From an uncultured Pseudomonadota bacterium (GTDB lineage Bacteria > Myxococcota_A > UBA796 > GCA-2862545): DNA of 64,000 nucleotides. How positions within the stretch are numbered: the first letter of the stretch is position 1; each line of letters starts with the position of its first letter. The stretch covers positions 1-64,000 of the forward strand of contig CAIOSP010000064.1 of the NCBI GenBank assembly GCA_903861005.1. Direction: 5' to 3'. Under the pieces are notes generated by a model, which saw nothing but the letters and a program-made list of their open reading frames with translations, searched no databases and had not been told where the DNA came from. This document shows, one piece after another, positions 5,745-9,051 of this stretch. Position numbers and translations under genes: made by a program.

Positions 5745-7246
5745 ATGTGGAGCCTGCTGCTGGCGCTGGCCGGGTGCAACCCATTCGCGCACAATGCGGA
5801 CACGTCCGTGACGCTGCTGCACACCGCGGGGATGGAAGGAGAGATCGCCCCCTGTGGTTGACCCAAGCACCCCACGGGCGGTCTGCCCAGGCGTGCAACG
5901 GTGATCTCCCTGGCTCGCGACGCGGGCCCTGTCGTCGTGCTCGACGCGGGGCAGTCGCTCGCGCCGGCCACACCCATCCCTGAGGCGGAGCTCGCGCAGC
6001 GTCGCGCCAAGGCGGACCTGATCGCGTCGGCGTTGGAGACGTCGGGCATCGACGTGATGACGCTGGGCTCGCACGACTGGGCGTTGGGTGTGCCCGAGGT
6101 TCGCGCGTTGGTCACGGCCCACCACCTGCCGGTGATCGCCGCCAACCTGACCTGCGACGGCGCCGCGCCCTACCCAGCGTACAGGGTGGTCGAGCGGGCC
6201 GGGCGTCGGATCGGGTTTGTCGGGGTGACCAACGGCGTGGTCGACGGCTGCGTGGTCGGGCCGCTGCGCGACGGCGTGGTGTCCGCGATCGAGTCGATGG
6301 GCCCGGTGGACGCGGTGGTGGCGCTGCTGCCCACCGAGACGCCCGACACGCTCAAGACCCTCGTCGGCTTGTCCGGGATCGACCTGGTGATCGACGCGGA
6401 CCCGTCCCGACGCCCGGACGCCGCGGAGGCGCTTGGACGCGCGTGGGCGGTGGGCGCGGGCAAGCGCGGTCAGATGGTGGGCGGCACCACGCTCACCTGG
6501 GTGGAGGGCGGTGTGGGCTGGGCGCCCGACGACGACGTGAAGCGTGCCCAGGGCGAGGTCGCGCGCCTGCAGCGGCGGGTGGATTCGCTGAACAAACGGC
6601 TGATTCTGCCCAACGGCCAGCCCGATCCCAAGGTGGCCAAGCTCCTCGACGAGGCCAAGCACGCCGTCGACCAGGCCACCGCGAACATCCCGACCGACGA
6701 CTCGACGCCGCACAACCGCATCGGCAAGGCGAACAACCTGCTCGACACCAGCGTGGCGGACGAGCCGACGCTGGCGAAGGCGGTGGAGGCCTTCAAGGCC
6801 CAGAACACGACGGAGGCCCCGCCTGAGCCGGTGACCGGCCATCTCGCCCCCGAGGGCTCGGCCTACGCGGGCTCAGACGCCTGCCGCGCCTGCCACCCCG
6901 ACGAGTTCGCGCAGTGGGTCGGCACCCGGCACGCCACGGCGTGGGCGTCGCTGCTCAAGGACCACCGGGAGCGCGACCAGGAGTGTGTGAGCTGCCACGC
7001 CACCGGCGTCGGCCTGCCCGGCGGACTGCTCGCCGCGAGCGAGATCGCCGGCCTGCGCGACGTGCAGTGCGAGTCCTGCCACGGGCCGTCCAAGGAGCAC
7101 GCTTCCGTGCCCCCGTCGCAGCGTCCGCCCAGCCCGAAAGATGCGACGATGTGCCTGACGTGTCACGATGGAAAGCGCGACGAGGGTCGCTTCGACTTCA
7201 AGGCCTACTTGCCTAAGGTCGTGCACCGCCCGCGCCAGGACTCCAA

Positions 7247-7250
<4 letters not shown>
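5745..7250 (+). CDS. UshA-like tetraheme cytochrome lipoprotein, probable selenoprotein with Sec at residue 39
   Basis: ATG 5745 has GAGGAG with a 5-base spacer and starts a clean lipoprotein signal, MWSLLLALAGC (lipobox LAGC). After 38 codons an in-frame TGA (5859-5861) follows PCG. The same frame then runs unbroken to 7250, continuing with GGLPRRATV, as in UshA-like proteins that have PCGC at this place. Sec in place of that Cys gives a 501-residue protein. Residues 39-260 are metallophosphoesterase/5'-nucleotidase-like (VVVLDAGQS, LGSHDW, ViAANLTC). Residues 265-350 are helical. The C-terminal part has four haem motifs: CRACH (380), CVSCH (414), CESCH (442) and CLTCH (470). It is probably an outer, haem-bearing redox lipoprotein; the substrate is unknown. 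The stop overlaps the tsaD start (GTGA). Alternatives are a disrupted gene or a TGC-to-TGA error. Confidence 0.72.
5873..5895 (+). promoter_or_regulatory. Candidate bacterial SECIS hairpin downstream of in-frame UGA
   Basis: The upper stem is GGGC (5876-5879)/GCCC (5885-5888), closing the loop GGTCT (5880-5884). A lower CAC/GTG (5873-5875/5893-5895) is separated by a bulge on the 3' side. The loop begins 18 bases after the UGA. Bacterial SECIS elements need a short stem with a G-G-U apex at about this distance, and as I recall E. coli fdhF also has GGTCTG after 18 bases. SelB binding is inference. Confidence 0.6.
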
Positions 7251-8223
<973 letters not shown>

Positions 8224-8227
<4 letters not shown>

Positions 8228-9051
8228 TCGACGCCAGTGATCCCGCAGCCATCCTCCGCGACCTGGAGCAGCGCGCCCGCAAGCGCTTCGGCCAGCACTT
8301 CCTCACGCGCACCGACATCGTCGCTCGCATGGTCCGCGTGGCCAAGGTCAGCCCCGGCGATCGCGTGGTGGAGATCGGCCCCGGCCTGGGCATCCTCACG
8401 CACGCGCTGCTCCAGGCGGGCGCGGACCTCACCGCGATCGAGATCGACGACATCCTCGCCGCGCGCTTCGCCGAGGTCTACCCGCAGGCCCGGCTGATCC
8501 ACCAGGACGCGCTGCGCGTGAACTGGGCGGAGATCTGCCCCGGCAGCGGCTGGAAGGTGGTCGCGAACCTGCCGTACAACGTGGGCACGGGCCTGGTGAT
8601 GGACCTGGTCCGCCAGCCCGAGCGCTTCTCCACGCTCACCGTCATGCTGCAGGCCGAGGTGGTCGACCGCTTCGTCGCCGACCCGGACGGGCGCGCGTAC
8701 GGCGCTCTCACCGTGCAGCTCGGCGCGCGCGCCGTCGCCCGCGCGGTGTTCTCGGTCCCGCCGGACTCGTTCGTGCCGCCGCCCAAGGTCAACAGCTTGG
8801 TCGCGCACATCGAGCTTCGCCCAGCGCCCGACGTCGGCGGGGTGGACCCGGACAAGTTCGACCGCGTGGTCGCGGCCGCGTTCAGTCAGCGGCGCAAGAC
8901 CATCCGCAACAGCCTCGGGTCCCTGTACGGTCGCGAGCGCGCCGAGGCGGCGCTGGCGTCGGCGGGTGTGGACCCGGGCGTGCGCGCGGAGGTCCTGGGT
9001 CGGCCGGAGTTCATCGGGCTGGCGCAGGCGCTGGAAGGCACGACGGGCTGA
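8224..9051 (+). CDS. rsmA: 16S rRNA (adenine1518/1519-N6)-dimethyltransferase RsmA (KsgA)
   Basis: A 275-residue methyltransferase of the KsgA/Dim1 family, which dimethylates two adjacent adenines at the 3' end of 16S rRNA during 30S maturation. Family marks are KRFGQHFL near the N-terminus, SAM motif I VVEIGPGLGILT, the acidic IEIDD, the catalytic NLPYNVGT (N-L-P-Y), and the C-terminal FSQRRKTIRNSL. The start is the ATG overlapping the tsaD stop; the open frame extends upstream through tsaD only as a shadow. Fully intact. Confidence 0.96.

What the first reader, a model, noticed from the sequence alone, without database searches (positions are those of the whole stretch)
5745..7250. Probable selenoprotein: UshA-like tetraheme lipoprotein with in-frame UGA and an fdhF-like SECIS
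Seen: one frame from ATG 5745 to 7250 is interrupted only by TGA 5859-5861. The part before it is a lipoprotein signal plus EGEIAPCG; the part after it continues GGLPRRATV. Cys-containing relatives have PCGC at this place, so Sec would replace Cys. A hairpin GGGC-GGTCT-GCCC starts 15 bases after the UGA, with its loop at 18 bases, the position I recall for E. coli fdhF. Known: bacterial SECIS elements lie just after the UGA with a GGU apex, and UshA-like selenoproteins have been noted before. A fusion with four CxxCH haem sites may be little described. An annotation pipeline would truncate or split this gene.
Basis: partly seen in the sequence, partly recalled or inferred. Interest (0 to 1): 0.92.

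Follow-up and report, generated by a model that had tools for sequence, protein, structure and literature searches.

The report
Selenocysteine tetraheme UshA-like lipoprotein
A bacterial gene that looks cut by a UGA stop codon most likely encodes one complete haem protein containing the rare amino acid selenocysteine; it belongs beside a known but uncharacterised protein family that looks like a dead phosphatase turned into a redox protein.

Summary
Frame 5745-7250 is broken only by TGA 5859-5861. The genome encodes tRNA-Sec, SelA, SelB and SelD. Of 30 order-level loci fetched (window included), 29 have TGA at this codon and one lacks the site at a contig end; apart from the same-genus gene they are 34-43% identical to the window protein. 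The GGUCU loop lies 18 nt after the UGA, as in E. coli fdhF. Its apex Gly codon is GGT in 29 of 29 Sec genes, against 152 of 1,341 Gly codons elsewhere in these genes and 1 of 13 Cys paralogues. Selenocysteine is as well supported as sequence allows.

The novelty claim fails: the protein matches NCBIfam NF041198 "UshA_like_PCGU" end to end, haem part included, and UshA-like CxU selenoproteins were in print by 2008. It scores below that model's cut-off (224.7 against 275).

Least described is the anatomy: the phosphatase fold stays, no member of 30 keeps all metal ligands, yet Cys-Gly-Sec/Cys, four CxxCH and two further His are invariant. I propose a redox protein with a Cys/Sec couple served by haems; substrate unknown.

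The parts
5745..7250 (+). Whole gene: 501 codons incl. Sec at codon 39, stop TGA 7248-7250
   Evidence: One frame with TGA read through; purifying selection on both sides of the UGA
5745..5777 (+). Lipoprotein-type signal MWSLLLALAGC, proposed lipid-carrying Cys at codon 11
   Evidence: Read by eye; no signal-peptide program was run
5802..6809 (+). Metallophosphatase (UshA/5'-nucleotidase) fold without its metal ligands, about residues 20-355
   Evidence: Profile match to solved nucleotidases, AlphaFold model and structural alignment, ligand columns
5859..5861 (+). Sec UGA codon, residue 39 of the Cys37-Gly38-Sec39 motif
   Evidence: TGA at this codon in 29 of 30 order-level loci, one lacking the site; Cys or Sec at the site in 42 of 43 wider relatives, one unresolved
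5876..5888 (+). Core SECIS hairpin GGGC-GGUCU-GCCC
   Evidence: Core pairs kept in 107 of 108 cells over 27 distinct sequences; same loop and offset as fdhF
6882..7166 (+). Tetraheme region, first to last CxxCH (residues 380-474), with invariant His396 and His452
   Evidence: Cytochrome_C554 PF13435 E 1.4e-16; motifs and His; haem attachment and axial ligands not tested
7247..8227 (+). tsaD, overlapping the end of the gene by 4 bases; neighbour, not thought to be part of the system
   Evidence: PF00814 E 1.1e-84

Best explanation
The gene encodes a 501-residue exported selenoprotein. At UGA 5859-5861, SelB carrying Sec-tRNA(Sec) binds the hairpin 5876-5888 and inserts selenocysteine instead of terminating (the machinery genes are shown; the insertion is inferred). 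The mature protein is probably lipid-anchored outside the cytoplasm. It consists of a metallophosphatase fold whose metal site has been dismantled and a C-terminal tetraheme part. Cys37-Gly38-Sec39 lies just after strand 1, in the region that carries the D-x-H metal ligands in true 5'-nucleotidases. Most likely Cys37 and Sec39 cycle between selenol/thiol and selenylsulfide, exchanging electrons with an extracytoplasmic substrate on one side and, through the four haems, with periplasmic electron carriers on the other. My odds by step: Sec insertion 0.96; redox rather than hydrolytic function 0.65; direct exchange between the Cys/Sec pair and the haems 0.45. Substrate unknown.
For: Sec machinery in the genome: tRNA-Sec 60.9 bits (gathering 47) and ARAGORN tRNA-SeC; SelB 298.8 (cut-off 242.25) with SelB winged-helix domains; SelA 472.1 (267.9); SelD 201.1 (125). 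TGA conserved in 29 of 30 order-level loci, the other lacking the site. GGT apex codon 29 of 29 against 152 of 1,341 and 1 of 13. Hairpin position as in fdhF. Purifying selection on both sides. Site is Sec in 16, Cys in 26, unresolved in 1 of 43 relatives. Cys37, Gly38, Cys/Sec39, four CxxCH, His396, His452 invariant in 30 of 30, while His of D-x-H and Asn of G-N-H are absent in 30 of 30 and the window has none of the seven ligands. Fold: PDB profile matches, Z about 30 to CD73, UshA and SoxB.
Against: No peptide, selenium or haem was measured. Hairpin energy not significant; no Rfam match; little covariation (2 cells with both sides changed; 289 of 500 shuffles reach the observed number of such pairs). 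Three genomes with the gene show no selA (G008, G039, G047; 77, 78 and 95% complete). The haem region is the less certain part of the model (block means mostly 56-82), and no Sec-haem distance was measured. Gene neighbours give no substrate. Ligand positions were mapped by eye from one PDB alignment, with ligand roles recalled.
Confidence: 0.7

Rival explanations
1. Cys37 and Sec39 are structural: a stabilising selenylsulfide in a loop, and the protein is only an electron carrier or binding protein.
For: Human CD73 and snake-venom 5'-nucleotidases also have cysteines in the corresponding loop before the GG-x-A-R motif (alignments).
Against: Sec is costly and rarely structural (general knowledge); Cys-Gly-Cys/Sec is invariant in 30 of 30 while the sequence around it varies.
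Confidence: 0.2
2. The protein is still a hydrolase (nucleotidase or SoxB-like thiosulfohydrolase) that uses Sec/Cys as a metal ligand or nucleophile.
For: Overall fold equals 5'-nucleotidases and SoxB (Z about 30); some family members keep single ligands (D of D-x-H 10 of 30, D of GD 12 of 30).
Against: Two ligand columns are empty in 30 of 30 and the window keeps none of seven; Pfam finds no metallophosphatase or 5_nucleotid_C domain in the window protein at E 0.1.
Confidence: 0.12
3. The UGA is a real stop: a broken gene, a sequencing error, or a separate gene starting at GTG 5901.
For: A standard ORF list gives an ORF from GTG 5901; hairpin energy alone is unremarkable.
Against: Same TGA in 29 order-level loci and in members from other phyla; selection on both sides; complete Sec machinery; start at 5901 would lose the signal and strand 1 of the fold.
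Confidence: 0.03

Closest known systems
NCBIfam NF041198 UshA_like_PCGU, 'UshA-like (seleno)protein' (COG0737 UshA-like, CxU, in PMC2398784, PMC9312934, PMC13188914; passages seen)
   Same: Whole-length match, E 1.9e-66, haem region included; PCG-Sec motif
   Different: 224.7 bits, below the curated cut-off 275; of 10 relatives scanned, 3 pass it. The window and L055 form a divergent branch by score
NCBIfam NF049981 UshA-like (seleno)protein family 2 (CxxU in PMC13188914)
   Same: Weak match to residues 22-111
   Different: 27.9 bits against cut-off 140; spacing here is CxU
5'-nucleotidase / UshA / CD73 and SoxB
   Same: Metallophosphatase fold, Z about 30 over about 270 residues
   Different: Metal ligands lost; tetraheme region instead of the C-terminal nucleotidase domain
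Cytochrome c554 (Nitrosomonas; PDB 1bvb)
   Same: PF13435 match and PDB match of the haem region
   Different: Here fused behind a phosphatase-like domain; axial ligands not established
E. coli fdhF SECIS
   Same: GGUCU loop 18 nt after the UGA
   Different: Different stem sequence

Membership tests
Bacterial selenoprotein gene | In-frame UGA at a position that is Cys in homologues | tested here: met
   Sec 16, Cys 26, unresolved 1 of 43 relatives
Bacterial selenoprotein gene | Stem-loop just downstream with conserved G in a small apical loop | tested here: met
   criterion as in PMC1088965 passages. Energy not significant
Bacterial selenoprotein gene | selA, selB, selC, selD in the genome | tested here: met
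Bacterial selenoprotein gene | Selenium found in the protein | not testable with these tools
   Needs 75Se labelling or mass spectrometry
NF041198 UshA_like_PCGU (equivalog) | PCG[U/C] motif and whole-length profile match | tested here: met
   5-485 over 6-518 of 519; motif
NF041198 UshA_like_PCGU (equivalog) | Score over the curated cut-off 275 | tested here: not met
   224.7 bits; so filed as a divergent relative, not as a formal member of the equivalog
NF049981 UshA_like_Sel_2 | Score over the curated cut-off 140 | tested here: not met
   27.9 bits
5'-nucleotidase / UshA enzyme | Metallophosphatase fold | tested here: met
5'-nucleotidase / UshA enzyme | Dinuclear metal ligands | tested here: not met
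   None of seven in the window; two columns empty in 30 of 30 (mapping by eye, roles recalled)
Tetraheme c554-like cytochrome | Four CxxCH motifs | tested here: met
Tetraheme c554-like cytochrome | Covalent haem and axial ligation | not testable with these tools
   Two invariant extra His are candidates only

The most novel reading that the evidence does not exclude
The PCGU/PCGC family is an undescribed class of extracytoplasmic oxidoreductase: a 5'-nucleotidase fold that lost its dinuclear metal site and put a Cys-Gly-Sec/Cys redox centre in the same active-site region, passing electrons through a fused tetraheme chain.
Probability: 0.5. Interest if true: 0.65.

Novelty: new member of a known kind. 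Interest (0 to 1): 0.38.

Why it matters
It is a well-supported selenoprotein in a branch that the curated model scores below its limit, so such genes may be cut short in annotation. It also turns an uncharacterised selenoprotein family into a testable proposal: a dead phosphatase whose old active-site region now holds a selenium redox centre served by haems.

Tried and rejected
Two or three in-frame TGAs in some rows looked like multi-Sec proteins. Reading L033, L034, L035 and L039 showed the later TGA to be the natural stop inside the end of the alignment; the other such rows were not read one by one for this.

Gene neighbours: tsaD overlaps the gene by 4 bases and lies within the fetched flanks of 16 further loci out of 39 searched including the window's own (L024-L062); L025 and L054 are probably one gene, and flank lengths differ. 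In other phyla the neighbours differ. Other multihaem genes sit next door in L060, L063 and L064. No substrate clue.

Rfam: no match. Folding energy: not significant (z from -1.7 to 1.4 over all Sec genes). Formate dehydrogenase as another Sec gene in this genome: seven matches, none over the cut-off, no stop inside; no other selenoprotein family was searched for there.

selA against presence of the TGA gene in 58 genomes: 44 of 51 with a selA match and 3 of 7 without have the gene (Fisher p 0.0195). I counted the gene by hand from the capped listing; 29 were checked at codon level, the rest taken from rows with a TGA inside. Three of the 51 selA matches are fragments with E 1e-4 to 1e-18. The genomes are partly incomplete and related, so the support is weak.

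Literature: searches listed no paper that I recognised as describing the haem part or the lost metal site of this family; only passages of four papers were seen (a fifth had no matching passage), and the library is open access only. That a Cys-Gly-Cys motif suits thiol-disulfide chemistry is recalled; one search gave a listing only.

Full report
What is in the sequence. The frame from ATG 5745 to stop TGA 7248-7250 encodes 501 residues and is interrupted only by TGA 5859-5861. It begins with what I read by eye as a short lipoprotein signal, MWSLLLALAGC. Cys37-Gly38-[UGA] is followed by PKHPTGGLPRR. The C-terminal part has CxxCH at residues 380, 414, 442 and 470 and matches Cytochrome_C554 (PF13435, E 1.4e-16).

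Sec machinery. The window lies on contig C64 of an assembly of 5.81 Mb, 96.7% complete. It holds a tRNA-Sec (60.9 bits, gathering 47; ARAGORN tRNA-SeC, anticodon tca), SelA (472.1, cut-off 267.9), SelB (298.8, cut-off 242.25) with GTPase, SelB barrel and two SelB winged-helix domains, and SelD (201.1, cut-off 125), which is fused to a pyridine-nucleotide oxidoreductase domain.

The UGA is conserved. In 58 genomes (own and relatives), 56 have some match at E 0.001 or better, many of them to the haem part or to Cys paralogues only. The best 30 loci were fetched, the window's own included. In 29 of them codon 39 is TGA: 28 and L035, which has some undetermined bases. L032 starts at residue 79 at a contig end. 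Apart from the same-genus gene, at 92%, these are 34-43% identical to the window protein. Against the same-genus gene, dN/dS is 0.195 before the UGA (4 changes only) and 0.193 after it, and 1.9 and 3.2 in shifted frames; the UGA and the 45 bases after it shown in the alignment are identical. From the 79 loci I took the 43 whose match covered most of the protein: the site is Sec in 16, Cys in 26 and unresolved in L065.

The SECIS. The hairpin GGGC-GGUCU-GCCC (5876-5888) has its loop 18 nt after the UGA, the same loop and offset as E. coli fdhF read from NC_000913. The second Gly codon, which forms the GGU apex, is GGT in 29 of 29 Sec genes; GGT is 152 of 1,341 Gly codons downstream in these genes, and 1 of 13 at the same site in Cys paralogues of the order (14 were fetched; L134 did not match my motif). 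Over 27 distinct sequences the four core pairs are kept in 107 of 108 cells and the six-pair helix in 87.7% of cells, against 19.8-61.7% when slid. Against it: only 2 cells show a change on both sides, 289 of 500 shuffles reach the same number of such pairs, the outer two pairs fail in 19 of 54 cells, the window hairpin folds no better than shuffles (z -0.96), Rfam finds nothing, and a loose version of the hairpin follows 14 of 1,380 TGAs in the window. The argument rests on conservation across distant genes.

What the protein is. NF041198, UshA_like_PCGU, 'UshA-like (seleno)protein', matches residues 5-485 over 6-518 of 519 positions, E 1.9e-66, but 224.7 bits is below the curated 275. Of 10 relatives scanned, all hit this model and 3 pass its cut-off. 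The tetraheme part lies inside the model, so the fusion is the family's normal architecture. By the cut-off the window protein is not a formal member of the equivalog; it is a divergent branch of the same kind. UshA-like CxU selenoproteins are in a table of the GOS survey of 2008 (76 sequences; PMC2398784, passages seen) and in reviews of 2022 and 2026 (PMC9312934, PMC13188914; passages seen), the last naming NF041198.

How it may work. A profile of 30 proteins (the window and 29 of the 43 relatives; 14 left out as near-duplicates, partial or doubtful) finds YfkN (9.3e-27), 5'-nucleotidases (from 6.2e-25) and SoxB (from 9.6e-16) in the PDB. The AlphaFold model (mean pLDDT 81.6) has the same fold, Z up to 30.7 over about 270 residues. 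I mapped the seven nucleotidase metal ligands by eye from the alignment to 3ivd, with ligand roles recalled. The His of D-x-H and the Asn of G-N-H are missing in 30 of 30; the other five are present in 10, 12, 11, 8 and 1 of 30; the window has none of the seven and keeps only His110, at the position I recall as the catalytic His, which 8 of 30 have. By contrast Cys37, Gly38, Cys/Sec39, the four CxxCH, His396 and His452 are invariant. The Cys-Gly-Sec motif follows strand 1, six to eight residues behind the former D-x-H. The simplest reading is that the hydrolase site was abandoned and a thiol/selenol redox centre took over, with four haems to carry electrons. Shown: the losses, the invariances and the predicted fold. 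Inferred: export, haem loading, the redox cycle and the coupling. The haem region is the weaker part of the model and I could not measure the Sec-haem distance.

Co-occurrence. selA is found in 51 of 58 genomes. 44 of these 51, and 3 of the 7 without selA, have the TGA gene by my hand count (Fisher p 0.0195). The three exceptions, G008, G039 and G047, are 77, 78 and 95% complete; the last is a mild point against, unless selA is missing from the assembly.

Verdict. Observation confirmed. Selenoprotein and SECIS readings supported. Novelty reduced to a divergent new member of a known, uncharacterised kind. The dead-phosphatase-to-redox reading is the part worth an experiment.

Noticed in passing
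L056:6001-7485 and the gene with its motif at L056:7849: An AT-rich genome carries two PCGU/ACGU genes in tandem, each with TGA and a GGTCT hairpin and four CxxCH.
   Followed up: no
G000:C170:27804-28652 (L147:3148-): The own genome has a protein with a thioredoxin-like N-terminus by eye and eight CxxCH, related in its haem part to the window protein.
   Followed up: no
L133, L135-L146: Other genomes of the order carry a separate Cys paralogue group with (P/A/V)CGCPT...GGF in place of PCGU...GGL (13 of 14 fetched matched the motif); none of this type was found in the own genome.
   Followed up: partly
L151:3108-5270 (own genome C35): SelD is fused behind a pyridine-nucleotide-disulfide oxidoreductase domain and is a Cys form by eye.
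   Followed up: no
L063:4560-5860: In a Planctomycetes relative a sigma-70-type factor and a zf-HC2 protein, perhaps its anti-sigma factor, lie just upstream of the PCGU gene.
   Followed up: no
window 7247-9051: tsaD overlaps the gene by 4 bases and is followed by an rRNA adenine dimethylase gene.
   Followed up: partly
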